Source: Burkholderiaceae bacterium 26 (GTDB taxonomy: Bacteria; Pseudomonadota; Gammaproteobacteria; Burkholderiales; Burkholderiaceae). Taken from it: a stretch of 64,000 nucleotides of DNA. The notes below the pieces were generated by a model, which worked only from the letters and a program-made list of their open reading frames with translations, was not told the DNA's origin and did not search any database. Shown piece after piece: positions 31,069-47,605 of this stretch; positions within the stretch are counted from its first letter, which is position 1; every line of letters starts with the position of its first letter. Location of the stretch: NCBI GenBank assembly GCA_000955795.1, contig JYOB01000001.1:1-64000 (forward strand), written 5' to 3'. Both the position numbers and the translations under genes were made by a program.

Positions 31069-31092
31069 AGCGTGAGGTACGTTTTGCAGAGA

Positions 31093-31422
31093 TCAGCGCC
31101 CAGACTGCTGGACAAGGTTGACCGTCGACGCCCGCGTTCCGGAGCTCTGCTGTGCAAGGCCAGGCATGGCCTGATTGAACGAATTGAGGTAGCGCTGATA
31201 GGCCAGCGCTGCCTGCTCGCCTCGCAACGGCACGAACTCGCCCGCGTAGGTGCCCTCGGCTTGCGCCTTGAACAGCGCCCGCGTCGCATCATTCACGTGG
31301 GTGCCGACCTTGGGTGCCGCCGCGGCGCCCTGCGAGTCGCTGCCCGAGAACCCCTGGGCGCCGGCGACGCCGCACGTCAGCCATGCCGCCACACCGGCGG
31401 CCATCAAGATGCGGGAAATCAT
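31093..31422 (-). CDS. DUF3613-type exported protein of the Tad locus
   Basis: A 109-residue protein with a signal peptide (AAGVAAWLTCGVAGAQ) and a short helical mature part ending in a repeat-like EQAALAYQRYLNSFNQ segment. DUF3613 genes sit in Tad loci of Ralstonia and relatives, without a known function. Its ATG overlaps the tadD stop (ATGA), and tadG starts 24 bases downstream. The mature part is short and soluble, so a periplasmic partner of TadD or TadG is the natural guess. Confidence 0.75.
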   Translation of the reverse strand: MISRILMAAGVAAWLTCGVAGAQGFSGSDSQGAAAAPKVGTHVNDATRALFKAQAEGTYAGEFVPLRGEQAALAYQRYLNSFNQAMPGLAQQSSGTRASTVNLVQQSGR

Positions 31423-32354: not shown

Positions 32355-32355
32355 C

Positions 32356-33345: not shown

Positions 33346-33354
33346 GCGCCCTCC

Positions 33355-34281
33355 TCAGACCGATTTCGCCAGCTTGGCCAGCATGACCGCACCCAGCACT
33401 TCCATGCCGAAGGCCGTGAGAATCAACGTCTTGCCGAACGGGTCGCGCCACATCGACATGATGTACGCCGCGTTGAACATGACGATGACACCGCCCACCA
33501 CGATCGGCAGCAAGCCGATGATCCATGCGGACAACCGCGTTTCCGCCGACAGTGCAAACAGCTCGCGCTGGGCTTGCTGCCGGTCACGCATGAATGCAGC
33601 CGTGCGCTCCATCACAATGTCGGCCCGCCCGCCGTAGCGCAATGCCAGGCGCAGCACCGACGACAGCAGGACCAGTTCGTTCACGCGGTACTGCTGGCCG
33701 ACGGTCAGCACCGCTGCGTCGAGGTCTTTGCCGGCGCGCTGCATCTGCGTGATGGCGATCAGGCAGTTGCGCAACGGCTGCTCGGTATTTGCACTCGCCG
33801 CCTGAAACGCCGCGGGTACCGCGCTGCCAATGCTCATCAGCCGCACCACGCCATCGAGAAAGCCTGGCAATTGCGCCAGCAGGCGCTCGTTCATCTTCCG
33901 GGTGCGATTCCAAAACAGGAACGCAACGATCAAGACATACAGTGCCAGCGCGGTCAGGGCCGAAAGCGCGCTCGACATCGCCCAGACCGCGAGCGCAATC
34001 AACAGCGCTGGGCCAATCAGCAGCACGTAAAAACGCCGGCTCGGCTCGATATCGGCGCGGCGCAATGCATCGTGCCAGGCGCGATTGAGCGAATCGGGCA
34101 CGCTTGCCGGCACGGGCTCCACATTCGGTTGATAACGCGCATTGATCTGCTCGGTCTGTGCGCGCACGAAGCTGCGCGATGCCTCGCGCTCGCGACGGCG
34201 CACGGCCTCCGCCCACAGCATGAGCGATGCGCCCATCAGGAGCAGCGCGAGGCAACCGAACCAGAGCGTCATGCTAGACAT
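33355..34281 (-). CDS. tadB: TadB inner-membrane platform protein
   Basis: A 308-residue GspF-like membrane protein that pairs with TadC. It has an N-terminal membrane helix, a central hydrophobic pair (residues ~105-145) and a C-terminal pair. The cytosolic loop between them contains NERLLAQLPGFLDGVVRLMSIG, the typical F-domain motif. It overlaps the tadA 3' end by eight bases, so translation is coupled to the ATPase. A role in assembly and perhaps retraction of the Flp fibre is known for the family. Confidence 0.9.
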   Translation of the reverse strand: MSSMTLWFGCLALLLMGASLMLWAEAVRRREREASRSFVRAQTEQINARYQPNVEPVPASVPDSLNRAWHDALRRADIEPSRRFYVLLIGPALLIALAVWAMSSALSALTALALYVLIVAFLFWNRTRKMNERLLAQLPGFLDGVVRLMSIGSAVPAAFQAASANTEQPLRNCLIAITQMQRAGKDLDAAVLTVGQQYRVNELVLLSSVLRLALRYGGRADIVMERTAAFMRDRQQAQRELFALSAETRLSAWIIGLLPIVVGGVIVMFNAAYIMSMWRDPFGKTLILTAFGMEVLGAVMLAKLAKSV

Positions 34282-35629
34282 GGAAACGGCCTCCGCCGCC
34301 GAATCCGGTCATGCCACCGTCCATCCCGCCGCCCTCGCTATTGCGCATGCGGGCCAGCTTGGGCGAATGCGGCTGCAGGCCGAGCGCCGTCCAGCGGTCG
34401 ACCTCCTCGCCGTCCGGGCCAATGTAGGGCTCGTAGCGGTACAGCTCCTGCGTGGAGATGATGTTGTCCCCCAGCCCCGTCACTTCCGTGATCGACAGGA
34501 TGCGGCGCTTACCGTTGGACAACCGCCCGATCTGCACGATGAAATCAATGGCGTTGGTGATCTGCCGGCGCAAGCTCACCTCACTGCCTTGGAAGCCGGC
34601 AAAGCCCGCCAGCATCTCCAGCCGGTAGAGGCATTCGCGCGGGCTGCTGGCGTGAATGGTGCCCATCGAGCCATCGTGGCCGGTGCTCATGGCTTGCAGC
34701 ATCTCCAGCACTTCACCGCCACGCACTTCGCCCACGATAATGCGGTCGGGCCGCATGCGCAGGCTGTTGCGCAGCAGCTCCCGAATCGTGACGACGCCCG
34801 TGCCCTCGAATCCGCCCGGCCGGCTTTCCAAGCGCACCACGTGCGGGTGGTTGAGCGACAGTTCGGCCGTGTCCTCAATCGTGATCACGCGCTCGACCTC
34901 GGGAATGTGATACGCCATCGCGTTAAGCAGCGAGGTCTTGCCCGAGCTGGTACCGCCACTCACCAGGATGTTGCATCGGGCGCGCACAGCAGATTCGATC
35001 AGCGCACCGATCTCTTCACTCATGGTGCCCAGGCCGAGCAGGTCTTCCGGCTTGAGCGGGTCTTTTCGAAACTTGCGGATCGACACCACTGGCCCTTCGA
35101 GGGCCAGCGGCGGAATGACCACGTTGATGCGGCCGCCGTCGGGCAAGCGCGCATCGACCATCGGGTTCGACTCATCCAACCGGCGCCCGATCGGCGCGAG
35201 GATGCGACGCACGATGCGCAGCAGGTGGTTGTTGTCGGAAAAGCGCACCGGAATGCGCTCGAGAATGCCGTGACGCGACACGTACACGTCCAGATGACCG
35301 TTGACGAGAATGTCTTCCACCGCCGGGTCGGCCAGCAGGTCTTCGATGGGGCCAAAGCCGGCCAACTCCTTGGTCAGCGCCTCGGCAATCTGCCGCACCT
35401 CCGTCTCGTTGACGGGGATGCGGCGCATACGCGTGAAGCCTTCCACTTCCAGATCGACAAAACGCTGGATGGCCGTGCGCGACCAACGACCGAACTCGGC
35501 GCCAAGTTCTTCGATGCGCGTCAGCAGGTGTTCGTGCGCGGCTTCCTTGATGTCCTGGAAGGCCTGCGAGACGGCAAACACGCCGTGGCCGGCGTCCGCC
35601 TGGTTGGAGAACTCGATGGGTTGGGTCAT
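34274..35629 (-). CDS. tadA: TadA/CpaF secretion ATPase
   Basis: A 451-residue GspE-family ATPase that powers Flp pilus assembly from the cytoplasmic side. Walker A is GGTSSGKT (225-232), the Asp box has EDTAEL, Walker B lies around 296-306 ([11 protein letters not shown]) and the His box is [12 protein letters not shown]. The N-terminal domain (1-190) matches the CpaF type. It overlaps tadZ by four bases and tadB by eight. The C-terminus is short and glycine-rich. Confidence 0.95.
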
Positions 35630-36969
35630 GTCGCGTTCCGTTCGGTGGTACCGATATCCAGTTCAGTGGCGTCTGCCGACTTGCGTTTGGAGCGCCCGCC
35701 AAAGCGCCCGCCCAGCCGCGCACTCACGCCAGACACCCAGCTCGACACACCTGACGCGCGCTCACTCTGCTGCGCATAGCCCAGCGTCTGGGCAATCTGG
35801 GCTAGCGCACGCACATAGGCATCCGTGGGGTGGGTCTCGGCCAGCATCGCGCCCTGGTTGGAGGCGATCACCAGCGCTTCGCGGCGGTTCGGCACGGTCA
35901 GCACCGAGGGGATCTCCAGCCGCTCGGCAATCTGCGCTGCGTCCAACGACAGGCGCGTGTCGAATTTCGATATGGTCAGGTGCAGGTGGTCGCGGTCAAT
36001 TTCGCGCTTCTTGAGTTCCTGCATCAGCTCGGCGGCCGACACAATGGCGCCGACGCTCTGCTCGGTTACCAGCATCACGTCGTCGGCGGCTTTGATGATC
36101 TGCGCGATGAAGTCGATGTTGCCGAACCCGCCCAGGTCAACGACCTGCAGGTCGAAGAACGTACGCAGCCGATTGAGCAGGCCGAGCGCTTCGGAGAACG
36201 AAATGTCGCGCATTTCCGCCAGCGAGATCGGCAGCGGCAGGACGGCAAGCCCGTTCGGATGACGCGACAGCGCGGTCTGTACAAACACCTGGTCGAAACG
36301 GCGCAGGTTGCGCACAGCCTCAACGAAATGGAAATTGGTCTGCACGTTGAGGTACAGCGCGCCGTCACGCAGCGGCTGCCCCAGGTCGAGCAGCATCACG
36401 TCACTGGCCGACGTGCGGCGCACGAGCGTGGCCAGATTGGTGGCCAACGTGGTGGCGCCCACGCCAGGGCGTGCGCCCAACACGGCCAGCACGCGGCCGC
36501 GGCGGGTCGGCTCAGCCGATGCGCGCTCCGCCAGCAGGCGGCGCACCACGCGCACGGCCTCGGCCGGTGCGCCGTCCACATCGACGAAATCCTTCACCCC
36601 TGCGCGCAAGGCAGCCAGCATCGCGCGGCCATCGGCAGCGGAACCCACAGCCACGAGCGGCAAGCCCGGAAACAACCGCGTGAGTTGCGCGACCAGTTGC
36701 GTCGCCTCGTTGACGGCGTCGGCGCCCTCGCCCAACTTTTGGTCGTGATCTGGCACGTCAATGAGCGTGGGCGACGAGGCAAAGCGCACGAACACGACTT
36801 CGGGGTTCACTGCGCCAATCTGCTCGATGAACGCGTCGTGGCCGGTCGTCTCAGCCACCAGCACGCCCAGCTCGCGAATCGCCCCGGCCAGCCAGCGGTG
36901 CACAGCTGCCGCCTGGGCGTCGCCTTGCATACCGCCACGCGCGCCGCCGTGCAGAAGGAAGTAATCCAT
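35626..36969 (-). CDS. tadZ: TadZ/CpaE localization protein (MinD/ParA-like)
   Basis: A 447-residue protein with a receiver-like N-terminus (1-~150) and a MinD-like ATPase domain. The phosphate loop reads GARPGVGATTLATNL (deviant Walker A), followed by LLDLGQPLRDG and VVDLGGFGN. In the family it sets the site of pilus assembly at the pole, often without true ATP cycling. The stop overlaps the tadA start (ATGA). It is 9 bases after rcpA. Confidence 0.9.
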   Translation of the reverse strand: MDYFLLHGGARGGMQGDAQAAAVHRWLAGAIRELGVLVAETTGHDAFIEQIGAVNPEVVFVRFASSPTLIDVPDHDQKLGEGADAVNEATQLVAQLTRLFPGLPLVAVGSAADGRAMLAALRAGVKDFVDVDGAPAEAVRVVRRLLAERASAEPTRRGRVLAVLGARPGVGATTLATNLATLVRRTSASDVMLLDLGQPLRDGALYLNVQTNFHFVEAVRNLRRFDQVFVQTALSRHPNGLAVLPLPISLAEMRDISFSEALGLLNRLRTFFDLQVVDLGGFGNIDFIAQIIKAADDVMLVTEQSVGAIVSAAELMQELKKREIDRDHLHLTISKFDTRLSLDAAQIAERLEIPSVLTVPNRREALVIASNQGAMLAETHPTDAYVRALAQIAQTLGYAQQSERASGVSSWVSGVSARLGGRFGGRSKRKSADATELDIGTTERNAT

Positions 36970-36978
36970 GCCGGCCCC

Positions 36979-38343
36979 TTACTTCGAGAACCCGGGCATG
37001 GTGGCCGGATCTGCCACCCCCAGGGCAAACGGCCGCCACACAGCGTCGCCTGCGGTATCGCGATCCCGCCCGCCGCTCTGTCCCGGCAGCATCTTGTCGA
37101 TCGGCGCATTGCGTGCCATCGGCTTGACCAGATGCGGCGTGACGATGATCACCAACTCCCGCTCTTCCTGGTTGTAGTTCAGGCGTTTGAAGAACGTCCC
37201 GATGATCGGCACGTCGCCCAGGAACGGCACCTTGTCGACGTTGGACAGCGTCGATCGGCTGACCAGCCCGCCGATGACAAAGCTCTCGCCATCGCCGAGT
37301 TCAACGGTCGTATCGGCACGGCGCGTGACGATGGCCGGCACCGTTGCGCCATTAAGCGTGATGCCTCGGCTGAAATCCAGGTCGCTCGCTTCGGGCGCCA
37401 CTTTCAGAGCGATGCGGTTTTCCGACAGGATCGTCGGTGAGACCGTCAGCCCGATGCCGAACGGCTTGTACTCGATGGTGGTGGTACCCAGCGCTTGCGG
37501 CACGGGAATCGGAATCTCGCCGCCGGCCAGGAAGTTGGCGCTCTGGCCTGACAGGGCAACCAGGCTTGGCTCAGCCAGCACGCGCGCCATGCCGTTTGAT
37601 TCCATCAAACTCAGGTTGCCAAAGAGCCCCTTGCTGACTGATCCGATCAGCAGGTTGAACGCGGAGCCGATCGGCATGGTCGATTCGGTCGACAACCCTG
37701 TCGAGCCGAATGTGTATTTGGTCAGCGATGATGGAGAGAACGTGCTGAAGCTGAAACCGCCACGTGTGCGGGTGAAGGAGAAACCCGCTTCCTTGAGCAC
37801 TGTCTTGCTGAACTCCACCACGCGCACGTCGACTTGCACCGTGCCCGGCACGTTCATCGAGGTGGTGTCGATGACGTTGCCGTCTTTAGGTTTTTCCCCG
37901 CCGCTGGCTGCGGCGGCCGAGCGGCGCGCACGGGCAAGCGCGTAGACATCTTTAGGCTGGCCGGACACGACCGCGCTATCGCCCTGCGCAACCACGGCCG
38001 GATCGCCCGGCAGCGGCGCCACGGCGTCCACTTGGACGTTGTAAGTCGTCGCAACGCCGCCTTGCGTCCAGACCATCACGTTGGCCGCGCCCGGCTTCTT
38101 CGCGATGATCAAAACGCTCGTGGCCGTGCCGCGCCCCTTAAGCAGCAACGCATCGGCAATTTCAGGGTTGCCGATGGCAATGCGCTCTAGCGGCTTGCCC
38201 AGGCGAATTTCGCGCTGACTGCCCGTCAGGAGATGAAGCGTCTGGCCGGTGGGTGCCGTCTCGGCAAATGCGCTTGACACGAAGGCAGCGCAGCCCAACG
38301 CGAGTACGCCCATCCAACCGCGAACCATGGCGGCATCAGTCAT
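36979..38343 (-). CDS. rcpA: RcpA/CpaC outer-membrane secretin
   Basis: A 454-residue secretin that forms the outer-membrane channel for the Flp pilus. A signal peptide (ALGCAAFVSSAFAE) is followed by the CpaC N-domain (LHLLTGSQREIRLGKPLERI) and the secretin domain in the C-terminal half (AEPSLVALSGQSANFLAGGE, then GLTVSPTIL). I set the start at the ATG 38343, which has AGGAG four bases upstream. A GTG at 38355 lacks one. It overlaps rcpC by eight bases and is followed by tadZ. Confidence 0.93.
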   Translation of the reverse strand: MTDAAMVRGWMGVLALGCAAFVSSAFAETAPTGQTLHLLTGSQREIRLGKPLERIAIGNPEIADALLLKGRGTATSVLIIAKKPGAANVMVWTQGGVATTYNVQVDAVAPLPGDPAVVAQGDSAVVSGQPKDVYALARARRSAAAASGGEKPKDGNVIDTTSMNVPGTVQVDVRVVEFSKTVLKEAGFSFTRTRGGFSFSTFSPSSLTKYTFGSTGLSTESTMPIGSAFNLLIGSVSKGLFGNLSLMESNGMARVLAEPSLVALSGQSANFLAGGEIPIPVPQALGTTTIEYKPFGIGLTVSPTILSENRIALKVAPEASDLDFSRGITLNGATVPAIVTRRADTTVELGDGESFVIGGLVSRSTLSNVDKVPFLGDVPIIGTFFKRLNYNQEERELVIIVTPHLVKPMARNAPIDKMLPGQSGGRDRDTAGDAVWRPFALGVADPATMPGFSK

Positions 38344-39265
38344 GTTGCTCCTCACGTTTTCCTGCGCGGATGATTTCTACGCCGCTGGTGGCGACCGTAT
38401 TGGCTCGTGCGGTCGCGCGCGTTGACGCCACCACGGGCAGCGGCGGCACCTGAAGCACCGGCGAGCGGCGCGCCGCGCCAGTCAGGCTGGCAAGGGATAC
38501 CCCGGCCTGTGCCACGTCCATCGGATTGCGGTTCGCGGCAGCCAGCAGGGCTGCGTCCTGCGGCTTCACGGTCGGCTCGGCGTCGTCCCCCGGGTTGCGC
38601 AGCGCCAGCAGCAGGCGACCGCTCTGATGTGCCATCGCCAACTGGCTGACCGCTTCCACCGGCACTGCCAGCACGGCCGTTTTGGCTTGATCAACCTTGC
38701 GCGTGACCCCGTTGTTCTCGGGCTGCTTCTGCGCCCCTTCATTGACGGCCAGCGGGCCAAACGCCAGGACACGCAGGTGCGGCAACAGCAGGCGTGCCTG
38801 GCTGTCTTCGACCTCCTGGCCATCCTTGCGCATCACCAGGAACACGTCGACGTAATCGCCCGGCATCACGCGGTTGCCCACACCGATCACCTCATCCACG
38901 TTGATGGCCACCGCGCGCTGCCCGGCCTCCACCTGCTGCGCTAGGCCCGAGGACAGTTGCGAGGCAATCAACGGCACACCGACGCCGACCGGCAGAATGG
39001 GTTCACGCCCCACCACCTTCGTCACGTCCGAAAACGCCTCCGCCGGATTGATGGGCAGTTGCTCGACGGCCACCTGGTCTGCGGTGATGGGCTTGCCCGC
39101 CTCCAGCGGTTTCGTGGTCACGACCACCGGATAGACGGCTTTGCCATCTTTCTGCTCGGCCACGGGTGCCGGCGGGCGATGCGCCGTCTTCCATGCCACG
39201 GCGCCAAGAATGGCGGCCAGCAGCAACAGTGCGGCGGCGAAGATCTGGAGGTGTTTGCTGGTCAT
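38336..39265 (-). CDS. rcpC: RcpC/CpaB pilus assembly protein
   Basis: A 309-residue protein with one N-terminal membrane helix (LLLLAAILGAVAW) and a SAF-type domain (PVVVTTKPLEAGKPITADQV). RcpC works with the secretin RcpA at the outer membrane or periplasm, and its SAF/beta-clip fold may bind glycan. A proline-rich and mainly Ala/Val C-terminus ends at an in-frame stop overlapping rcpA. It is separated from tadE by 52 bases. Confidence 0.9.
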   Translation of the reverse strand: MTSKHLQIFAAALLLLAAILGAVAWKTAHRPPAPVAEQKDGKAVYPVVVTTKPLEAGKPITADQVAVEQLPINPAEAFSDVTKVVGREPILPVGVGVPLIASQLSSGLAQQVEAGQRAVAINVDEVIGVGNRVMPGDYVDVFLVMRKDGQEVEDSQARLLLPHLRVLAFGPLAVNEGAQKQPENNGVTRKVDQAKTAVLAVPVEAVSQLAMAHQSGRLLLALRNPGDDAEPTVKPQDAALLAAANRNPMDVAQAGVSLASLTGAARRSPVLQVPPLPVVASTRATARANTVATSGVEIIRAGKREEQHD

Positions 39266-39317
39266 CTGGGCGGCGTGTCCGAGCGGTCGATCGAGAGGGT
39301 CAGCGAACTGAAAAGTG

Positions 39318-39821
39318 TCAGGAGCCAGGCACCAGCTGCACGACGGCTGAACCCGTCAATGTGTCCGGCGCGGGCAAGAGGGGTATCGAAGGCAGCAACG
39401 GGTTATTGCCGGAGGTCACGGGCAACGTCAGGACCACGCTCAGGCATTGCATGCCTGCCACGTTCTGGCAATTCACGAGCGGGGTGCTGTTCTGATTGGT
39501 CTGCACCCGCCCGGTAAGGAACGTGGGGAGTACCGACGTCACGGCCGCATAGGCAGCTGCCACGCGTTGCGTGTTGGAAGGCTGATAGCGGAGTGCAGCG
39601 CGTGCGCCCTCCTCAGCCGCAAGGGTCAGCGCCTGCTGCATGGCGAGGATCACGCCGTAGTACACGATGCCAAGCATGAGCACCAGCAGCACCGGCACGA
39701 CGACGGCAAATTCGACAGAGGCTGCGCCGCGGCCACCGCGCCGCCAAGGGCGACGGACAGCATGCGCGCGGACTTCCGGGTGCATGCGAGCACCCTCCCG
39801 TTCCCGTTGCAATGTCGGCAT
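39318..39821 (-). CDS. tadE: TadE minor pseudopilin
   Basis: A 167-residue protein. After a basic N-terminus, the TadE signature GAASVEFAVVVPVLLVLMLG gives the prepilin-type processing and membrane segment, with the E five residues after the G. The rest is periplasmic with two cysteines. The ATG at 39821 has AAAGGAG six bases upstream, which supports it over a later ATG at 39785. TadE is a pseudopilin needed for Flp pilus formation. It lies 64 bases after tadV. Confidence 0.88.
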   Translation of the reverse strand: MPTLQREREGARMHPEVRAHAVRRPWRRGGRGAASVEFAVVVPVLLVLMLGIVYYGVILAMQQALTLAAEEGARAALRYQPSNTQRVAAAYAAVTSVLPTFLTGRVQTNQNSTPLVNCQNVAGMQCLSVVLTLPVTSGNNPLLPSIPLLPAPDTLTGSAVVQLVPGS

Positions 39822-39885
39822 GGCCGACTCCTTTCTTATAGGCAGGCCGCTTGGCGGCTCTTGTTCAATGCTTCAACTGTCTGAA

Positions 39886-40449
39886 CTACATGCCTGGCAG
39901 CCATGGCATGCGCATCACTGAGGGCACCCATGGCAGGCTCAGCAGCCCGATTGCCATATAGGCCGCGTACGGAATTCCTCGACGCCCTGCCTGAGCGGTA
40001 TCCCAGCGTGCGATCGCCGGGCACACGCGCATCACGATCCACGCCGAAGGAGAAGACGCATCAAGCTGGCGTAACCCCATGATGGCGAGCGCGTGCAAGC
40101 CGGAAATCATGCTCGAGACAAGCCAGACGGCCACGAGGCCATGCCAGCCGGCCAGCAGGCCGACGACGGTGAAAAACTTCACGTCGCCGGCGCCCATCCA
40201 GCCGAGTGCATATAGCGGCAAAAAGCAGGCAAACGCGATCGCACCGCCGAGCCAGAAATCCTGCCAGTCATAGGCAAGGTCCTGCACCCCGCCCAACTTG
40301 ATCAGGATGACGGACAGCACAACTCCCGCTGCGACGAGCCAGTTCGGCACCCGTCTAGAACGGAAATCCTGCGCAATTGCAACTAATGAAAGGACTACGA
40401 TCGCTGCCCAGCCTGGCGTATCGACGTGGCCGTACCAAGTTGCTAGCAA
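39886..40449 (-). CDS. tadV: TadV/CpaA prepilin peptidase
   Basis: A 187-residue inner-membrane aspartic protease that cleaves the Flp leader. The two catalytic aspartates are D28 (AQDFRSRRVPNW) and D89 in GAGD. It is small, lacking the N-methylation domain of PilD, as is normal for this branch. The only in-frame start is a TTG at 40449 that overlaps the flp stop codon by seven bases. There is no separate ribosome-binding site, so it is probably made by translational coupling to flp, at much lower level. Confidence 0.88.
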   Translation of the reverse strand: MLATWYGHVDTPGWAAIVVLSLVAIAQDFRSRRVPNWLVAAGVVLSVILIKLGGVQDLAYDWQDFWLGGAIAFACFLPLYALGWMGAGDVKFFTVVGLLAGWHGLVAVWLVSSMISGLHALAIMGLRQLDASSPSAWIVMRVCPAIARWDTAQAGRRGIPYAAYMAIGLLSLPWVPSVMRMPWLPGM

Positions 40450-40622
40450 GCCACGTTCTTGTTGACGGCTTGGCAGATGGACGCAAACACGCTCTCAAGC
40501 TTGGTACCGAGCGTGGACACGATCGTCACGATCGCTGCTGCGATGAGGCCAGCGATCATGCCGTACTCGACGGCAGTGGCACCTTGTTCGTCACGGATGA
40601 ACTTCAGAATGGCGTTCTTCAT
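40443..40622 (-). CDS. flp: Flp major pilin
   Basis: A 59-residue prepilin. The leader is MKNAILKFIRDEQG. Cleavage is after G14, followed by ATAVEY with E19-Y20 (the Flp motif G/xxxxEY), and then a hydrophobic helix to the C-terminus. It ends with a Cys pair region (CQAVNKNVAC). AGGAGAG precedes the ATG. It is the subunit of the bundle-forming pilus used for surface attachment, biofilm and, in plant or animal hosts, colonisation. It heads the Tad operon on the minus strand and is followed by tadV within its own stop. Confidence 0.95.
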   Translation of the reverse strand: MKNAILKFIRDEQGATAVEYGMIAGLIAAAIVTIVSTLGTKLESVFASICQAVNKNVAC

Positions 40623-41191: not shown

Positions 41192-42316
41192 TCAGTGCGC
41201 CAGGCTGCCAACGCCGCCCAGCAAGTTGGTTACAGGGGCCAGCGGATTGCTGCCCGATGCGCCGCCGGCCGCGCTGGTCGCGCCGCTCAGCAGGTTGGTG
41301 ACGGGGGCCAGCGGGTTGCTGCCACCGGCTGCGCCGCCCAGCAGGCCCGTGACAGGAGCCAGGGGGTTGGAACCGCCAGATGCGCCGCCCAGCAAGCCGG
41401 TCAACGGAGCCAGCGGGTTCGTGCCGCCGGTGCCGCCGCCCACGCCGCCGAGCAAGCCTCCCAGGGGATTGCTGCCCGCCGAACCGCCGGTCGTGGCGAC
41501 GCCGCCGATTGCCGCAACCGTGGTGCCGAGTGAAGTCACCACCGGGCCCAGGTTCGAGACCACCGGCACGCCCGTCCCGGTGATGGTGTTGCCGGCGCCG
41601 GCCACGCCGCCGCCAACGGTCCCCAGCAGGTTGTTCAGGGCTCCGCCCAGGCCCGTCGAATCGCCAATCATCTGGGTGGCGCCGCTGACCTGCGTGGTAA
41701 CCGGCACGATCGCCGTGCTCAGTTGCTGCGTCACCTGCTGAACCGCGCCGGAAGACAGCGCGCTGCCCAGCAGCGTGCCGCCGCCGATCAGCGCCTGGCC
41801 GATCTGCTGAACGCCGCCGCCCACCGGTTGGGTGATCGGTGCGAGCGGTGCGCCAGAGCCTTGGCCGAGGCCCTGCACGAGGGAGCCGGCGCTTACGGTT
41901 GCCTGGCCGAGATCCGTCACGACATTGCCGGTGCTGGCCACCGTCGTGCCGATCGGGTTCGGGTTCTGGCCCATCTTGCCGAGCCCGGTCTGGACGCCCA
42001 GGCCGAGATCGCTGACCGCTTTGCCAGTGTTGTCCACGGTGCCGCCAAGGCCAGCCTTGGCTTGGTCCGACAGGCCGGGAATGTTTGCGTTTTGGAGCGT
42101 CGAGCCGAGGCTGCTGACTGCCTGGCCGGTCGCCACAACGGTGTTGCCGGTGCCGTTTGCGACCTTGCCGACGGGCGTCACGCCTGTCGTGTCGCTCGGG
42201 CTCGGATTCGGCGAACTGCCGGAGCCGGAGCCTCCCGAAGAGCACGCCGCCAGCATGAGAGCGGCAACAGCGCAGGCCAACGGCGCAATGCGAATGGAGT
42301 GTCGAATGTGAGTCAT
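41192..42316 (-). CDS. NPLAP-repeat surface lipoprotein (paralogue of 42806-44278)
   Basis: A 374-residue lipoprotein: signal peptide with lipobox LAAC (C25), then a short Gly/Ser/Pro linker (SSGGSGSGSS, then PNPSPS). About 200 residues of weak repeats of the type VGxTVxSxGNVVxxxG follow, then C-terminal tandem units of about 20 residues containing NPLAP(L/V)TxLLGG. Four full units and one altered unit (NPLGG) are seen. Annotation pipelines may call this 'collagen-like', but Gly is not at every third position. The gene has a sigma-54 promoter and a terminator of its own. The middle region aligns with the divergent paralogue. Surface attachment or matrix formation is a guess. Confidence 0.85.
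   Translation of the reverse strand: MTHIRHSIRIAPLACAVAALMLAACSSGGSGSGSSPNPSPSDTTGVTPVGKVANGTGNTVVATGQAVSSLGSTLQNANIPGLSDQAKAGLGGTVDNTGKAVSDLGLGVQTGLGKMGQNPNPIGTTVASTGNVVTDLGQATVSAGSLVQGLGQGSGAPLAPITQPVGGGVQQIGQALIGGGTLLGSALSSGAVQQVTQQLSTAIVPVTTQVSGATQMIGDSTGLGGALNNLLGTVGGGVAGAGNTITGTGVPVVSNLGPVVTSLGTTVAAIGGVATTGGSAGSNPLGGLLGGVGGGTGGTNPLAPLTGLLGGASGGSNPLAPVTGLLGGAAGGSNPLAPVTNLLSGATSAAGGASGSNPLAPVTNLLGGVGSLAH
41196..41490 (-). repeat. NPLAP tandem repeats in the minus-strand lipoprotein
   Basis: Four NPLAP units and one altered unit encode the C-terminal region. They are spaced about 54-66 bases apart and vary in sequence. Confidence 0.75.
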
Positions 42317-42386
42317 GGTCCGTCCCCTTCTTGGAATGATGTGTCTTGATGTCTGAGCTCGGTATTGCGGACTGCGAGCCACATTC

Positions 42387-42402
42387 TGCAAATGGCATGC
42401 CA
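42387..42402 (-). promoter_or_regulatory. Sigma-54 promoter of the minus-strand NPLAP gene
   Basis: On the minus strand it reads TGGCATGCCATTTGCA, which matches TGGCACGnnnnTTGCW at every fixed position except one (T for C in the -24 box). The start site would be near 42377, about 60 bases before the ATG at 42316. Confidence 0.75.
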
Positions 42403-42514
42403 GGCGCAGTAGAAACCGGATTCAGTTTTCAAAGGACGGCGTGGTTATTGGTTTTGTAGGCAGCGTGCCAAGTGTCAGCCGACCCTGAACACAGACTGTT
42501 TCCCACCCAAATCC

Positions 42515-42553
42515 GTGTTCCGAGCGTTACGACGTAACGTGACACGGGAACAC
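42515..42553. promoter_or_regulatory. Large dyad between the two sigma-54 promoters (candidate activator site)
   Basis: GTGTTCC (42515-42521) and GGAACAC (42547-42553) flank an inner inverted repeat CGTTAC-GAC-GTAACG (42525-42539) and the word ACGTGACA (42538-42544 region). It lies about 140-170 bases upstream of one predicted start and 190-220 upstream of the other, the usual range for an enhancer bound by a sigma-54 activator. ACGTGACA also appears in the flp leader. Confidence 0.6.
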
Positions 42554-42713
42554 ATTCGCTTCGGACATAACCCTCTAAGCAAACGTTTAACCCCCACTTT
42601 GGTGGGGTATGTAAATCCCATATTCTGATTAGTTTTCACAATCCCTCCATTTTTATTGAGCTAAACGCGGCAAATTCACATACCTCATTACGCATTGCGT
42701 AATAACCATGACA

Positions 42714-42729
42714 TGGCACACCGTTTGCA
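42714..42729 (+). promoter_or_regulatory. Sigma-54 promoter of the plus-strand NPLAP gene
   Basis: TGGCACACCGTTTGCA fits TGGCACGnnnnTTGCW with one mismatch in the G at position 7 and with the correct spacing. Start near 42740, leaving about 65 bases to the ATG at 42806. Confidence 0.8.
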
Positions 42730-42805
42730 GAGTCCGGCCACCTCACATCGACAGTGAGACATTTTCCAGCTGACTAAAGCGGACTTTTAAAACGGGAGAT
42801 CCATC

Positions 42806-44278
42806 ATGAATAAGAACATCAAGTGCCTGGCCGCCACCATGGCAAGCCTGCTGGTTTTGGGTGGTTGCGCCAGCTCCGGCTCCGGCGACATGGGCAGTTC
42901 GCTGGGCGGCTCCAACGGCAGCGGCTCGAATAACAGCGGCAGCGGCTCCACGCCGTCGCCTTCACCGTCTCCGTCGCCCTCCCCGTCGCCGTCGCCTTCG
43001 CCGTCCCCCAGCCCGACGCCGGCACCGGCTCCGCTGACGCCGGCTGGCGCCGTCCTCAACAATGCAGGCGGCGTCGTCACGGCAGCCGGCTCGACGGTGA
43101 GCGGCCTTGGCAATACCATCGCCACCGCACCGCTGCCCTCGCAATTGAGCGGCGTGCAAAGCGGTCTGGGCGGCGTGGTCGAAAATGCCGGCGCGACAGT
43201 CTCGGCACTGGGCACTGGCATTCAAGACGGGCTGGGCAGCATCGGCCGCAACGCCAATCCGGTGGGCACCACCGTTTCCAGCCTCGGGAATGTGGTGACC
43301 GGCGCAGGCAACACGGTCACGAGCGCCGGCACGCTGGTCAATAACCTTGGCACTGGCCCGCTGGCGCCGCTGGCTCCGGTGACGACACCGCTGGCAGGCG
43401 TGGTCACGCAAGTCGGGCAAGCGGTCGCCAATGGCGGCAGCACGCTGGGCACGGCCCTGTCGACCGGCCCGGTGGAACAACTCACGCAGCAACTGAGCAC
43501 CGCCATCGTGCCGCTGACTTCGCAGATCACCAGCGGTACACAGACGCTGGGCGCTGCCACGGGCCTCGGCTCGCCGGCAAACACGCTGCTGGGCACGATT
43601 GGTGGCGCGGTGGCCAATGGCGGCACCACCCTCACCGCAGCGAACGTTCCGGTGGTGAGCGGCCTGGGTGGCGTGGTGACGGCCACGGGCAACACGGTTG
43701 CCGCGCTCGGCGGCGTGGTGTATTCGCCGACGGCATCGGGCGGCAACCCGCTCGCTCCGATCACTGGCGCACTTGGTGGCCTCGGCGGCCTTGGCGGCGC
43801 TGGCGGCTCCAATCCGCTGGCTCCGATCACGGGCTTGCTGGGCGGCCTTGGTGGCGCGACGGGCGGCAGCAACCCGCTCGCTCCGATCACCGGCGCACTC
43901 GGCGGTCTTGGCGGCGCTGGTGGTGCCAATCCGTTGGCTCCGATCACAGGCTTGGTGGGCGGCCTGGGTGGCGCGACGGGCGGCAGCAACCCGCTCGCTC
44001 CGATCACCGGCGCACTTGGTGGTCTTGGCGGCGCTGGTGGCTCCAACCCGCTCGCTCCCATCACTAGCGCACTGGGCGGCCTGGGCGGCGCAGCCGGCGG
44101 GGCCAGCAACCCGCTCGGCCCCGTCAGCACGCTCACGGCTCCGGTTGGCAACGTGGTCACCACGGTAGGCACAGGCTTGGCGTCGGCCGGCGGGGCTACA
44201 CCGCTGGCGCCGGTCACTGGCGCGGTGGGCGGTCTGCTGGGCACGGTGGGCACCGCACTGGGCGGCACGCCCCGCTGA
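42806..44278 (+). CDS. NPLAP-repeat surface lipoprotein with Ser-Pro stalk
   Basis: A 490-residue lipoprotein: lipobox LGGC (C21), a Gly/Ser/Asn linker, ten Ser-Pro pairs (a rigid stalk, ~51-70), then a 230-residue region of loose VVTxxGxTVxxLG repeats like the neighbour's. The C-terminal domain has tandem NPLAPITG-LGG units (six full and one altered), including a 39-residue double unit in two copies. GGGAG precedes the ATG. The lipid anchor and stalk suggest a surface-exposed adhesin or matrix-forming protein, but the function is unknown. Gly is frequent but not periodic in threes, so it is not true collagen. A sigma-54 promoter lies upstream, and a TpsB transporter gene follows 268 bases downstream. 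Confidence 0.87.
   Translation: MNKNIKCLAATMASLLVLGGCASSGSGDMGSSLGGSNGSGSNNSGSGSTPSPSPSPSPSPSPSPSPSPSPTPAPAPLTPAGAVLNNAGGVVTAAGSTVSGLGNTIATAPLPSQLSGVQSGLGGVVENAGATVSALGTGIQDGLGSIGRNANPVGTTVSSLGNVVTGAGNTVTSAGTLVNNLGTGPLAPLAPVTTPLAGVVTQVGQAVANGGSTLGTALSTGPVEQLTQQLSTAIVPLTSQITSGTQTLGAATGLGSPANTLLGTIGGAVANGGTTLTAANVPVVSGLGGVVTATGNTVAALGGVVYSPTASGGNPLAPITGALGGLGGLGGAGGSNPLAPITGLLGGLGGATGGSNPLAPITGALGGLGGAGGANPLAPITGLVGGLGGATGGSNPLAPITGALGGLGGAGGSNPLAPITSALGGLGGAAGGASNPLGPVSTLTAPVGNVVTTVGTGLASAGGATPLAPVTGAVGGLLGTVGTALGGTPR
42956..43015 (+). repeat. Six-base Ser-Pro microsatellite
   Basis: Ten near-identical TCNCCN hexamers encode (Ser-Pro)10. Such tracts can slip in replication and change stalk length without a frameshift. 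Confidence 0.8.
43741..44120 (+). repeat. NPLAP tandem array with 117-bp higher-order unit
   Basis: Six NPLAPITG units and one altered unit. Segments starting at 43798 and 43915 repeat as a 117-base (39-residue) double unit with few changes, a sign of recent duplication. Confidence 0.85.
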
Positions 44279-44294
44279 TCCACGCTCTGCGCTT

Positions 44295-44324
44295 CGGCGG
44301 ACCGGCTATCACGCCAGTCCGCCG
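44295..44324 (+). terminator. Hairpin after the plus-strand NPLAP gene
   Basis: CGGCGGAC (44295-44302) pairs with GTCCGCCG (44317-44324) around a 14-base loop. There is no strong T run, so termination may be partial and allow read-through to the TpsB gene. Confidence 0.45.
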
Positions 44325-44546
44325 CTGTCACGTTTCAAACGCACCGATGCCGCGCAACTCGGCATCGTCATTGGGCTGGCTGGCACGCACCGACGCATCC
44401 CAGTATTTACTTGGGCCGTTGCGTCGCGTGAACGCTCCCTCTATGTGTCTTGTTGTAAAGCACCATGTCTCGCGGTTATCGTTTGATCCAACGCGCGGCT
44501 GCACCGCTTCGCGACACCACAAACGAAAACCACGGAGGAGACAGGC

Positions 44547-46220
44547 GTGCGGACCACCACCATGCGGTTGGCCCTGGCCACAGGCGTAGCACTGACCGGC
44601 CCGGCACTGAGCTGGGCACAAAGCAGCCCCAACCAAGGCAACCCGATCGACACGCTTCCCAAGGTCGATACCTCCCGCCCGCCCCAGCAGAAGATCCAGG
44701 TAGAAGTGCAGCGGCCGAATCCGGCGCTGGAAAATCTGCTTGCCACGCATCTCACCCCGACCAAGTTCCAGATCGAAGGCGTCAAGACGCTGCCGTTCCC
44801 CGAGGTGGCCGCGCATTTCGCGCCGTTGGCCGGGCATGACATCACCGTCGCGCAACTGCTGCAGGCCGCGAACGATGTCACCAAGCTGTATGCCGACCGC
44901 GGTTTCCCGCTCTCGTTTGCGTTTGTGCCGGCACAGACGTTTGAAGGCGGCGTCGTGCGCGTCACGGTGGTTGAAGGCTATGTGGCCCGCATGCGCATCG
45001 AGGGCACGCCCGGCCCATTGGAAGGCCGCCTGCGCGAAATCTCGCAGCGCCTGATGAATGAGAAACCCCTCCGCCGCGAAACCTTCGAGCGCGTGACGGG
45101 TGTGCTCGCGCTGCAACCCGGCGTGCAGATCACCGCGACCGTGCAGCCGCCCACCACCACCGATGGCGCGAGCGAACTCGTGTTGAACGTCAAGCGCCAG
45201 CCGTACACCATTGGCACGGGCGTCGAATACCGCTCGCCGGGTGTGCGGGCGATCATCACGGGCACGCTCAATAGCGTGACGCCGCTGGGTGAGCAGATCA
45301 CCGTCTCGACGCTGCAACCGCGCGGGTCGGATCACGAGACGTTCTACTCCGCAACCTGGGCGCAGCCGATCGGCGCCGATGGGCTGCTTGCCAAGCTCAC
45401 GTGGTCACACTATCGCGGCATGCCCGAAAATCTGCCGCTGGAGCAACTGGGCTATCAGTCGCGCTATCTGACCGACACGCAGCGGCTTGGGTTGTCGTTG
45501 AGCTATCCGGTGTTGCTGTCGAACTCGCGCAACCTGACGGTGACGGGCACTTTCTACGGCAACGACGACAAGCAGCGCTATACGCCGCAAAACCCCGGTT
45601 TTGCTCAAACTGAACTGGATGCCAAGGTGCGCGTGGCCGGCGCCGAAGCGCTGTACACCGAAGTGAAACCCGGTGAAACGCGCCGTGCTTCGCTTGGCAT
45701 TTACCAAGGCATCAACAGCCTCGGTGCAGGCAAATCGGTCAACAACAACGTCGACCTGAGCTTCCTGCGCACGCGCATCACCGCCAGCGAAGCCCACGAC
45801 CTGCCCCTGGGTTTTGGCGTGGTGGTGTCGGGAGCCGCGCAGTACAGCGGCGCGGTACTGCCATCGTCGGAACAGATCAGCTTTGGCGGGCGCTTCTTCG
45901 GCCTCGCCTATCCGGCCGGTGAAGTGGCGGGTGATCGCGGCTGGGGCGCGTCGATCGAACTCAACCGTGCCTTCCAGGTATCGATGGATTACCTGAAAAC
46001 CCTGCAGCCCTACGTGCTGTACGACACCGCAAAGGTCTATTCAAACGCGGGCACGCTCGTGCATGATCAGCTCGGGTCGATCGCGCTGGGGGTGCGCTTC
46101 TCCGATCGGAAGTACTACACGCTGGACCTCGCCATCGCGCGACCGGTCGGCGACAAACCGATCAACTCAAGCTCGCGCAGCCTGCGGTTCAACGCAGCCT
46201 ATACCTACCAGTTCAACTGA
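44547..46220 (+). CDS. TpsB-type two-partner-secretion transporter (ShlB/FhaC/HecB family), no adjacent TpsA
   Basis: A 557-residue outer-membrane transporter. A signal peptide (ALTGPALSWAQ) and a Pro-rich segment precede a POTRA domain (TPTKFQIEGVKTLPF to TVVEGYVARMRIEG, ~70-150). A second POTRA-like part and a 16-strand-type barrel (from ~215) end at YTYQFN. The GTG start has GGAGGAG six bases upstream. TpsB proteins export large TpsA adhesins or hemolysins, but no TpsA with a TPS domain lies nearby. The flanking genes are the two NPLAP lipoproteins and a LuxR-type regulator, so it may move one of the repeat proteins to the surface. That would be unusual for a lipoprotein and is inference. 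Confidence 0.9.
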   Translation: MRTTTMRLALATGVALTGPALSWAQSSPNQGNPIDTLPKVDTSRPPQQKIQVEVQRPNPALENLLATHLTPTKFQIEGVKTLPFPEVAAHFAPLAGHDITVAQLLQAANDVTKLYADRGFPLSFAFVPAQTFEGGVVRVTVVEGYVARMRIEGTPGPLEGRLREISQRLMNEKPLRRETFERVTGVLALQPGVQITATVQPPTTTDGASELVLNVKRQPYTIGTGVEYRSPGVRAIITGTLNSVTPLGEQITVSTLQPRGSDHETFYSATWAQPIGADGLLAKLTWSHYRGMPENLPLEQLGYQSRYLTDTQRLGLSLSYPVLLSNSRNLTVTGTFYGNDDKQRYTPQNPGFAQTELDAKVRVAGAEALYTEVKPGETRRASLGIYQGINSLGAGKSVNNNVDLSFLRTRITASEAHDLPLGFGVVVSGAAQYSGAVLPSSEQISFGGRFFGLAYPAGEVAGDRGWGASIELNRAFQVSMDYLKTLQPYVLYDTAKVYSNAGTLVHDQLGSIALGVRFSDRKYYTLDLAIARPVGDKPINSSSRSLRFNAAYTYQFN

Positions 46221-46270
46221 CGCGCGCTGAAATCGTGAACACGTGAACTAATTTTTTATATTTTTTATAT

Positions 46271-46284
46271 TTTCAGCGCTGAAA
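46271..46284. promoter_or_regulatory. 14-bp palindrome in the LuxR-type gene leader
   Basis: TTTCAGCGCTGAAA lies next to a very AT-rich stretch (TTTTTTATATTTT, ~46253-46272) about 70 bases before the ATG. CCCC-tctcaa-GGGG follows at 46297-46310. Likely a promoter with an operator. Confidence 0.5.
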
Positions 46285-46351
46285 GTCGACCATACTCCCC
46301 TCTCAAGGGGGGGATACATCGCCGCCGGAATTTGGGAGCATCAAAAGCGGA

Positions 46352-47605
46352 ATGTTAAGTTTTTCCAAAGAGTTGCCGATTACCACAGAAGTCGCGCAGA
46401 ACAACAATAATCATGACAGCGACGGCGGCATCACGCCGCAACACGCCGACAGCAAGGGAATGCACTCTGAGCTGTCGCAATACGCCCCGGGGGCCATCAT
46501 GCTGCAACGTCTATCGGATGACGCAGAATTCCATCGACTCGTCGATACCATCTACGAGGCGGTACTCGAGCCTGCGCAGATGCCGATCGCCCTGGCCCTG
46601 CTCTCCGTCTACGCCGGCGCCGAAAGCGCACACTATTTCGTCTGGGATAAGCACACCGACACGCCGCGTCACGGCGTTTCGTCGGGCTGGTGCCAGCACT
46701 GCCCGCAACCAGGTCACTGCAACGCCTTCTGCCAGGACCCGCAACTGATCAACGCCGGGCAACCTGAAGAGACGCCGTCAGCCTCGATGACCCTGATCGA
46801 TACGCCCGACATGTGCGTCACGATGCGTCTGCGCACGCGCGACGACGATCTGTCGGAAGTCAGCGCCATCGAGCGCGAGACACGCCTTCAACGCGTGCTG
46901 CCGCACCTGCAGCGGGCTGCGCGCATGCAGCAGCGCAATCTGGAGCTGAACGAACTCGCCGCACTCGGGATGGCCGGCCTGGATACGCTGGACTTCGGCG
47001 TGATGGTCATCGAGCGCACCATGCGCGTGAAATACGCCAATGCCTGGGCGCGCACGATGACGACGGGCGACGACCGTCTGTCGCTTGATGGCGGCCTGCT
47101 GCATTCGGCAGATCACACGCACGACGCTGCACTGCGCAACCTTATCGAACAAGCCGCCGGCTCGCTCGGCGTACAAGGCGCGGCCGGTTCGTGGATGTAC
47201 CTGGCGCGCGATGGCCGCCCGGTGCCTTTCATTGCTACGCCGCTCGCGCCTTCCGATGCAATGCGTTCGACCTGGGCTTCGCCGCTGGCGCTGGTGCTCG
47301 TCGGCAACTCCGAGGCGCGCTCGGTCATGGACGCCGGCGTACTCGCCTCGCTCTTCGGTCTGACCAACAAGGAATGCATCGTCGCGGCGCGGCTGGCCGC
47401 GGGCGAAACCCTGCAGGAAATTGCCGAGCGCGAATTCCTCTCGCTGCACACGGTGCGCGTGCATATCCGCGACATCCTGCGCAAGACCGGCACACATCGC
47501 CAGTCAGAACTCGTGCGCCTGCTGCATCTGCTGCCCAGCGTCGATCTGGAACGTGCAGGTGCCGCCACCCCGGCTTCACGCCGGCGCGGCCGCCTTAACG
47601 CGTAA
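46352..47605 (+). CDS. LuxR-type helix-turn-helix regulator
   Basis: A 417-residue regulator with a LuxR/FixJ helix-turn-helix at about residues 340-400 (LTNKECIVAARLAAGETLQEIAE and then SLHTVRVHIRDILRKTG). The middle part (220-320) looks like a PAS-type sensor (DFGVMVIERTMRVKYANAWAR). A Cys-rich motif lies at about residue 110-135 (HCPQPGHCNAFC). The N-terminal 40 residues are disordered. No acyl-homoserine-lactone-binding pattern is clear. It lies 131 bases behind the TpsB gene with its own likely promoter, so it may control that gene or the NPLAP pair. This is contextual. Confidence 0.85.
   Translation: MLSFSKELPITTEVAQNNNNHDSDGGITPQHADSKGMHSELSQYAPGAIMLQRLSDDAEFHRLVDTIYEAVLEPAQMPIALALLSVYAGAESAHYFVWDKHTDTPRHGVSSGWCQHCPQPGHCNAFCQDPQLINAGQPEETPSASMTLIDTPDMCVTMRLRTRDDDLSEVSAIERETRLQRVLPHLQRAARMQQRNLELNELAALGMAGLDTLDFGVMVIERTMRVKYANAWARTMTTGDDRLSLDGGLLHSADHTHDAALRNLIEQAAGSLGVQGAAGSWMYLARDGRPVPFIATPLAPSDAMRSTWASPLALVLVGNSEARSVMDAGVLASLFGLTNKECIVAARLAAGETLQEIAEREFLSLHTVRVHIRDILRKTGTHRQSELVRLLHLLPSVDLERAGAATPASRRRGRLNA

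What the first reader, a model, noticed from the sequence alone, without database searches (positions are those of the whole stretch)
41192..47605. Putative sigma-54-controlled surface system: divergent NPLAP lipoproteins, orphan TpsB, LuxR-type regulator
The sequence shows two paralogous lipoproteins with lipoboxes, Gly-rich linkers and NPLAP tandem repeats. They are transcribed away from each other, each with a -24/-12 promoter. Next to them lie a TpsB/ShlB-type outer-membrane transporter without any TpsA partner and a LuxR-type regulator. Sigma-54 control plus a lipid anchor and a rigid Ser-Pro stalk suggests a regulated surface or matrix system. Known two-partner systems export non-lipidated TpsA proteins, so export of lipid-anchored repeat proteins by a TpsB, if real, would be new. 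The link between transporter and lipoproteins rests only on neighbourhood.
Basis: partly seen in the sequence, partly recalled or inferred. Interest (0 to 1): 0.85.

Follow-up and report, generated by a model that had tools for sequence, protein, structure and literature searches.

The report
Pilus-linked lipoprotein and TpsB export pair
Next to a pilus gene cluster, this Ralstonia carries lipid-anchored surface-type proteins paired with an outer-membrane transporter that is normally used for a different kind of cargo, and this pairing recurs across many related bacteria, which points to an undescribed way of putting lipoproteins on the cell surface.

Summary
The two lipoproteins belong to Pfam PF15984 (Collagen_mid; known in Burkholderia cenocepacia as adhesin-like "Bcc-CLPs"). 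The TpsB is not a stray orphan: a Collagen_mid gene lies directly upstream of it in 71 of 80 named loci, the two families co-occur in 221 of 398 Burkholderiaceae genomes with 5 discordant, and the pair recurs in two distant families. The paired TpsBs form one clade (100/99). Of 25 module-bearing genomes 5 have no TPS-domain (TpsA) gene; where placed, such genes lie on another contig or at least 86 kb away. The pair sits beside a Tad/Flp pilus operon whose last gene is a sigma-54 activator, also in 13 of 13 other genomes. Sigma-54 sites precede 90 of 95 first genes, 1 of 12 second genes and 1 of 58 flp genes. LuxR was found only in Ralstonia-type loci and is not part of the module. Best reading: a Tad-linked, sigma-54-controlled variant of two-partner secretion that displays lipidated, non-TPS passengers. 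Translocation itself is inferred, not shown.

The parts
41192..42316 (-). Collagen_mid lipoprotein A (374 aa), lipobox LAAC, NPLAP-type repeats at about 41192-41470
   Evidence: PF15984 E 2.2e-58; lipobox and repeats read from the sequence
42387..42402 (-). sigma-54 -24/-12 site of lipoprotein A, TGGCATGCCATTTGCA, 11 of 12
   Evidence: sites of this class stand before 90 of 95 first genes
42527..42537 (.). dyad TTACG-A-CGTAA in the divergent intergenic region, possible activator half-sites
42687..42703 (.). dyad ATTACGCATTGCGTAAT, 2 mismatches from GTTACGN5CGTAAC; candidate activator site
42714..42729 (+). sigma-54 -24/-12 site of lipoprotein B, TGGCACACCGTTTGCA, perfect consensus
   Evidence: one of 6 perfect sites in the genome
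42806..44278 (+). Collagen_mid lipoprotein B (490 aa), lipobox LGGC, Ser-Pro stalk, NPLAP repeats at about 43745-44125
   Evidence: PF15984 E 5.4e-67
44547..46220 (+). TpsB-type outer-membrane transporter (557 aa, GTG start): signal-peptide-like start (read by eye), POTRA_2, ShlB barrel; L6 motif GLAY instead of VRG(Y/F)
40446..40622 (-). flp pilin, first gene of the Tad operon
   Evidence: PF04964 E 3.9e-17
29350..40449 (-). rest of the Tad/Flp pilus operon: TadV 39886-40449, TadE 39318-39821, RcpC/CpaB 38336-39265, RcpA secretin 36979-38355, TadZ 35626-36969, TadA 34274-35629, TadB 33355-34281, TadC 32356-33345, TadD-like 31419-32354, TadG-like 29350-31068
   Evidence: Pfam
27937..29334 (-). 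sigma-54 activator (bEBP): Sigma54_activat, Fis-type HTH, GAFTGA; last gene of the Tad operon
   Evidence: follows TadG in 13 of 13 other genomes
46352..47605 (+). LuxR-type regulator; neighbour, judged not a part of the conserved module
   Evidence: GerE E 1.5e-10; homologues found only in Ralstonia-type loci

Best explanation
This is a Tad-pilus-linked, sigma-54-controlled surface module. Collagen_mid proteins are made as Sec/Lol lipoproteins (the Cys is followed mostly by Ala, Gly or Ser, not by the Asp inner-membrane retention signal) and delivered to the outer membrane. The dedicated TpsB clade recognises the conserved, probably helical Collagen_mid region in the periplasm, instead of the classical TPS domain, and threads the almost uncharged, Gly-rich chain through its barrel, so the lipid-anchored protein ends up on the surface, where it promotes cell-cell contact together with Flp pili. 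The activator encoded at the end of the Tad operon fires sigma-54 promoters of the lipoprotein-TpsB operon (and of the divergent lipoprotein), so surface display follows pilus expression. Shown by sequence: family, lipobox, adjacency, co-distribution, clade, absence of TPS-domain genes nearby, sigma-54 sites, activator position. Inferred: translocation by the TpsB, the recognition signal, activator binding to the dyads, and adhesive function in Ralstonia.
For: Adjacency on the same strand in 71 of 80 named loci, and in 14 of the 19 stretches that held Collagen_mid (the 5 others include two own-genome paralogue stretches and one contig start). Co-occurrence 221 both / 4 TpsB only / 1 Collagen_mid only / 172 neither, of 398 (overlap computed). 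Of 368 other class-wide genomes, Collagen_mid is over the cut-off in two, the two best of four TpsB hits, with the genes adjacent. The 12 Collagen_mid-adjacent TpsBs form one clade, 100/99, apart from 16 others; the nearest outgroup sits beside a TPS-domain TpsA. TPS-domain genes: in 24 genomes with known places, absent in 5, on another contig in 13, on the same contig at least 86 kb away in 6. TpsB model matches CdiB and FhaC. Sigma-54 sites. Activator. Dyads. The two long Paraburkholderia loci without Tad genes (L165, L167) also lack the sigma-54 site. Literature: the B. cenocepacia relative BCAL1524 is found in outer-membrane vesicles and promotes autoaggregation (PMC10303873, abstract and passages); lipoprotein and flp genes are co-induced (PMC7970998, passages).
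Against: No experiment shows surface exposure or TpsB dependence; a vesicle-gel spot shows outer-membrane association only. The own genome has three further Collagen_mid genes without a neighbouring TpsB. In 7 of 7 Pandoraea loci TpsB stands apart from Collagen_mid. Herbaspirillum autotrophicum has TpsB beside Tad without a Collagen_mid gene upstream. Two of the four distant TpsB hits have no Collagen_mid match over the cut-off. The L6 arginine typical of the superfamily is lost in 29 of 30 module TpsBs, which could mean altered or reduced transport. The Collagen_mid model has low confidence (pLDDT 64). Co-distribution is partly shared ancestry. 268 bp with strong predicted RNA structure separate lipoprotein B and TpsB here, so a single transcript is not certain. 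The two distant pairs have no sigma-54 site in 350 bp and no match to five Tad queries in their 20-kb stretches.
Confidence: 0.6

Rival explanations
1. The TpsB and the lipoproteins are co-regulated surface parts of one Tad-linked adhesion island but act independently: the lipoproteins stay on the periplasmic face or reach the surface by another route, and the TpsB exports something else or only assembles itself.
For: Pandoraea separates the genes; the own genome has Collagen_mid lipoproteins without adjacent TpsB; L6 arginine lost in 29 of 30.
Against: The pair recurs without detected Tad genes in two distant families. No TPS cargo near it, and none at all in 5 of 25 genomes.
Confidence: 0.22
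2. The lipoprotein is an accessory of the TpsB (a pilotin or BAM-lipoprotein-like helper, or a plug) rather than its cargo.
For: Strict pairing and order; lipidation; helical prediction of the conserved domain.
Against: Long repeat-rich, nearly uncharged C-terminal regions and up to three lipoprotein genes per locus (L048) look like displayed material, not a stoichiometric helper; the deletion phenotype of a relative is reduced autoaggregation (PMC10303873).
Confidence: 0.1
3. The lipoproteins are exported or presented by the Tad machinery itself (pilus-associated adhesins), and the TpsB has a minor role.
For: Tad genes near 64 of 71 pairs; in G045 Collagen_mid stays with Tad, not with TpsB; co-induction with flp genes (PMC7970998).
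Against: Pairs without detected Tad genes in about 20-kb stretches (L165, L167; L187, L188); the lipobox implies the Lol route (established knowledge).
Confidence: 0.08

Closest known systems
Two-partner secretion (type Vb): FhaC, CdiB, ShlB
   Same: Transporter with POTRA_2 and ShlB domains and a CdiB/FhaC-like model; cargo-type gene directly upstream on the same strand
   Different: Partner has no TPS domain match, is lipidated and predicted helical; the TpsB forms its own clade and in Burkholderiales mostly lacks the VRG(Y/F) arginine
Bcc-CLP / Collagen_mid lipoproteins of Burkholderia (BCAL1523, BCAL1524; PMC10224339)
   Same: Same Pfam family, lipidation, position next to flp genes, and a neighbouring outer-membrane protein gene bcal1522 of similar size (1,686 bp)
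   Different: That paper lists BCAL1522 as 'exported heme utilization-related' and has no mention of ShlB or two-partner; that BCAL1522 is the TpsB is my inference from position and size, its sequence was not looked at
Slam translocons for surface lipoproteins
   Same: Would do the same job, moving a lipid-anchored protein to the surface; PMC9090332 likens Slam to two-partner secretion (passages)
   Different: Slam is, as recalled, a TPR plus DUF560 barrel; the window TpsB matches POTRA_2 and ShlB only
Tad/Flp pilus loci
   Same: Complete Tad gene set beside the module
   Different: Carries a terminal sigma-54 activator and the Collagen_mid-TpsB operon; the searches listed no paper whose title or abstract start ties these together

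Membership tests
Two-partner secretion (type Vb) | TpsB with ShlB-type POTRA and Omp85-type barrel | tested here: met
   Pfam POTRA_2 and ShlB; AF2 pLDDT 84, Foldseek best CdiB 6wim E 7.5e-27, FhaC
Two-partner secretion (type Vb) | TpsA partner with N-terminal TPS domain (PF05860) | tested here: not met
   No TPS match in the lipoproteins at E<=1; in 24 genomes with known places TPS-domain genes are absent (5), on another contig (13) or at least 86 kb away (6)
Two-partner secretion (type Vb) | Passenger not lipidated | tested here: not met
   Lipobox found by pattern in 110 of 119 Collagen_mid frames of the 80 loci; 9 not set by the pattern, some cut by contig ends
Two-partner secretion (type Vb) | L6 motif (V/I)RG(Y/F) (motif recalled; seen as VRGF in the own C5 TpsB) | tested here: not met
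   R absent in 29 of 30 rows; present as GRGY in the two distant relatives
Two-partner secretion (type Vb) | Transport of the partner across the outer membrane | not testable with these tools
   needs an experiment
Collagen_mid (PF15984) lipoproteins / Bcc-CLPs | PF15984 domain over the curated cut-off | tested here: met
   197.8 and 225.9 bits, cut-off 31.1
Collagen_mid (PF15984) lipoproteins / Bcc-CLPs | Collagen Gly-X-Y repeats | tested here: not met
   Longest GXX run 3 and 5; shuffle means 3.6 and 3.9
Slam surface-lipoprotein system | TPR plus DUF560 barrel (recalled) | tested here: not met
   Only POTRA_2 and ShlB match at E<=1
Sigma-54 regulon | -24/-12 promoter plus a cognate activator | tested here: inconclusive
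   Sites conserved and activator gene nearby; expression and binding not tested

The most novel reading that the evidence does not exclude
A new subclass of two-partner secretion: an Omp85/TpsB barrel dedicated to N-terminally lipidated passengers, with the Collagen_mid region as a new, helical kind of secretion signal, deployed on a sigma-54 signal issued by the neighbouring Tad pilus operon. In its boldest form the acyl chains stay in the inner leaflet and the uncharged linker remains threaded through the barrel, so that the TpsB is both exporter and surface anchor.
Probability: 0.5. Interest if true: 0.85.

Novelty: new variant of a known kind. Interest (0 to 1): 0.74.

Why it matters
How lipoproteins cross the outer membrane is, as far as I recall, largely open outside Slam and a few threaded cases. 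Here a very common transporter family is strictly paired with lipoproteins in more than two hundred of the genomes searched, including non-pathogenic model strains, so the question becomes directly testable. It also offers an identity for the outer-membrane gene next to the B. cenocepacia collagen-like adhesins, which the 2023 survey did not describe as a TpsB, and gives the Tad-linked sigma-54 activator a likely target.

Tried and rejected
Rejected: (1) orphan TpsB that lost its TpsA. (2) LuxR gene as a conserved part of the module: homologues in 10 of 80 loci, all Ralstonia-type. (3) True collagen-like protein: no GXX runs, helical low-confidence model. (4) A beta-helical TpsA in disguise: no TPS domain; the Collagen_mid profile gave one solved-structure hit, E 0.016, a viral coat fragment, taken as chance; no Foldseek match at E<=0.001. 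(5) Sigma-54 control of flp itself: 1 of 58.

Led nowhere: promoter/terminator scan between lipoprotein B and TpsB, nothing found; annotation of plasmid records around TpsB relatives, no features held there; distant TpsB hit in G457 lies at a contig edge. A 15-base back-translation of NPLAP matched the own genome once, on contig C8, outside the window, and was not followed up. One search cut the domain stretches wrongly and was redone. The script stopped with an error on one locus and was finished. Two Collagen_mid matches of the class-wide search are below the family cut-off (G479, G576) and were not followed.

Counts to read with care: the 221/4/1/172 overlap was computed from the handles printed, which I copied by hand; the g11 count was read by eye. 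In some searches, 107 of 119 Collagen_mid frames were used; 12 were dropped because no start could be set. The five first genes without a site are L111 (start wrongly set), L157 (contig edge), L134, L165 and L167. The tree holds 28 of the 55 POTRA_2 matches, because loci were capped at 30 and two (L220, L222) were left out; one row (L215) has a very long branch. Locus L102 bears the record name Ralstonia sp. but was grouped with Cupriavidus by me. In one search the place of the G045 TpsB is not known, so it is left out of the 24; draft contig ends limit the distance claim. Shuffle controls keep base composition only.
Full report
What was checked. The four genes of the finding are real and at the stated places. 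Both lipoproteins carry a lipobox and Pfam PF15984, Collagen_mid; lipoprotein B also has a Ser-Pro stretch, lipoprotein A does not. The next gene is a ShlB/FhaC-type transporter whose AF2 model (pLDDT 84, pTM 0.78) matches CdiB and FhaC best. The intergenic region holds two sigma-54 sites. The plus-strand site is one of six perfect TGGCACRNNNNTTGCW sites in the genome, against three for the reversed pattern; the consensus is as printed in PMC4371752 (passages).

The minus-strand neighbour is a full Tad/Flp pilus operon (flp 40446-40622 down to a TadG-like gene ending at 29350). Its last gene, 27937-29334, is a sigma-54 activator with Sigma54_activat and Fis-type HTH domains and the GAFTGA motif. 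In 13 of 13 other genomes fetched, a 51-68% identical activator also follows TadG. Of those 13 stretches 8 hold GAFTGA and in the other 5 the activator has GSFTGA.

Is the lipoprotein-TpsB link real? In 80 named loci found with the TpsB profile (the best 80 of 258), a Collagen_mid frame lies directly upstream on the same strand in 71. The nine others are one contig edge (L094), seven Pandoraea loci, and Herbaspirillum autotrophicum (L143), where TpsB lies beside Tad but the upstream genes are unrelated. Tad genes (at least 2 of 5 searched) lie near 64 of the 71 pairs; of the 7 without, 5 are cut by a contig end within 3 kb upstream of TpsB and 2 (L165, L167) are long stretches. In an even draw of 398 Burkholderiaceae genomes 225 have the TpsB at E<=1e-60 and 222 have Collagen_mid; 221 have both, 4 TpsB only, 1 Collagen_mid only, 172 neither. 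In a class-wide draw of 369 genomes (own included), besides the own genome only G597 and G799 have Collagen_mid over the cut-off (two weaker matches lie below it), and they are the two best of four further TpsB hits. In both, the lipoprotein gene directly precedes tpsB and Pfam confirms both families. The other two hits have no Collagen_mid match.

Is this TpsB a classical one? A tree of 28 TpsBs from 13 genomes puts the 12 Collagen_mid-adjacent ones in one clade (100/99). The nearest outgroup (G529) stands beside a 2252-aa protein with a TPS domain (E 2.6e-33). In the own genome the two TPS-domain genes are on contig C5, where another TpsB lies. Across 25 module-bearing genomes, 5 (G008, G010, G015, G058, G597) have no TPS-domain match at E<=0.001. 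Of the 24 with known places of both, 13 have such genes only on other contigs and 6 have some on the same contig, the nearest 86 kb away (with module places). In the Omp85 superfamily the L6 motif is (V/I)RG(Y/F) (recalled; the own C5 TpsB has VRGF). In the module alignment the arginine is absent in 29 of 30 rows, the exception being L161, whereas the two distant relatives keep GRGY. The simplest reading is that the arginine was lost after the pairing arose, on the Burkholderiales branch; the G529 outgroup also lacks it (GQAY), so this is not certain. Whether the loss alters transport is unknown.

Regulation. Scanning 350 bp upstream of 107 Collagen_mid genes (12 of 119 dropped because no start could be set), sigma-54 scores of at least 10 of 12 occur before 90 of 95 first genes but 1 of 12 second genes of tandem pairs (shuffles 1.1%; first pass). 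As an in-locus control, 1 of 58 flp genes has such a site. The three unlinked Collagen_mid genes of the own genome score none, 8 and 6. The two long loci without Tad genes, L165 and L167, also lack the site (6 and 9). G045 has no site within 350 bp, but one of 11 of 12 about 400 bp before the first gene. The dyad TTACG-N5-CGTAA occurs 56 times in 34 kb of these upstream regions and 6 times in the other 1.53 Mb of the 80 loci; 5 of those 6 lie, by position, between or just before Collagen_mid genes whose start was not set. GTTACGN5CGTAAC with up to 2 mismatches is found before 17 of 18 Ralstonia, 45 of 45 Cupriavidus, 7 of 7 Collimonas and 7 of 8 other Oxalobacteraceae genes, but only 1 of 29 Paraburkholderia/Burkholderia/Trinickia genes. 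There the same half-sites stand 8 bases apart in 11 of 29: all 11 are first genes, most at about -233 from the start codon, and 0 of 1450 shuffles hold it. I read the dyads as the likely activator site; binding is not shown.

The passengers. Collagen_mid lipoproteins are Gly-rich (median 23%) and poor in charge (median 2.9% K+R+D+E; 8 of 490 residues in lipoprotein B). The residue after the lipid Cys is Ala, Gly or Ser in 105 of 110, so Lol delivery to the outer membrane is expected (established rule, recalled). The window proteins are not collagens: no GXX runs beyond chance, and the conserved domain is predicted helical with low confidence and no convincing solved relative.

Literature. Estevens et al. 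2023 (PMC10224339: outline, section 3.2 and passages) named these proteins Bcc-CLPs, proposed them as adhesins, and noted that bcal1523-1524 may form an operon with bcal1522 and bcal1520 beside the flp operon; ShlB and two-partner do not occur in the text. PMC7970998 (passages) reports co-induction of flp genes with BCAL1520, 1523 and 1524 on contact with host-membrane vesicles. PMC2753556 (passages) lists two putative operons BCAL1524-1520 and BCAL1525-1537 and effects of cepR mutation on several genes there. PMC10303873 (abstract and passages) reports BCAL1524 in outer-membrane vesicles, less autoaggregation in its deletion mutant, and complementation. PMC4371752 (Table 3 in passages) lists predicted sigma-54 sites before two adjacent hypothetical genes RSp1093 and RSp1094 in R. 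solanacearum; that these are the Collagen_mid pair by a Tad locus is my guess. Searches for Collagen_mid, TpsB with lipoproteins, Tad pilus with ShlB, and collagen-like with FhaC listed no paper whose title or abstract start describes this pairing; most listed papers were not opened, and the library lacks most subscription journals.

Mechanism and verdict. The simplest account that covers the pairing, its recurrence without detected Tad genes, the lack of TPS cargo and the vesicle data is that this TpsB clade displays Collagen_mid lipoproteins. It works like two-partner secretion but fails defining tests of that family (TPS domain, non-lipidated passenger), so it is filed as a variant, not a member. 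I put 0.6 on export of the lipoproteins by the TpsB.

Noticed in passing
window 44295-44324: Predicted hairpin just after the stop codon of lipoprotein B without a T tract; the 268-nt stretch before tpsB folds better than shuffles (z -2.3). It could tune the lipoprotein-to-TpsB ratio.
   Followed up: partly
window 27937-29334, residues 1-135: The N-terminal domain of the Tad-linked sigma-54 activator matches no Pfam family at E<=0.01; its signal is unknown.
   Followed up: no
window 27038-27790: A DUF2968 gene follows the activator; a homologue also follows it in 9 of the 13 other genomes.
   Followed up: partly
G000 contig C8 187641-188204 and contig C4 89481-91199 (L055, L056): Three further Collagen_mid lipoprotein genes of the own genome without TpsB, Tad genes or a sigma-54 site nearby.
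   Followed up: partly
window 47909-49996: GGDEF-EAL protein directly after the LuxR-type gene, a possible c-di-GMP link to surface attachment.
   Followed up: no
L161 (Trinickia) and L205, L209 (distant relatives): These TpsBs keep an arginine in the L6 motif while the other 29 rows of alignment A3 have lost it.
   Followed up: partly
L165, L167 (Paraburkholderia): The two long loci that lack Tad genes near the pair also lack the sigma-54 site, as if both were lost together.
   Followed up: partly
window 23648-26887: A 1079-aa gene that looks like a self-sufficient cytochrome P450-reductase fusion beside the Tad operon end (named from the sequence, no search made).
   Followed up: no
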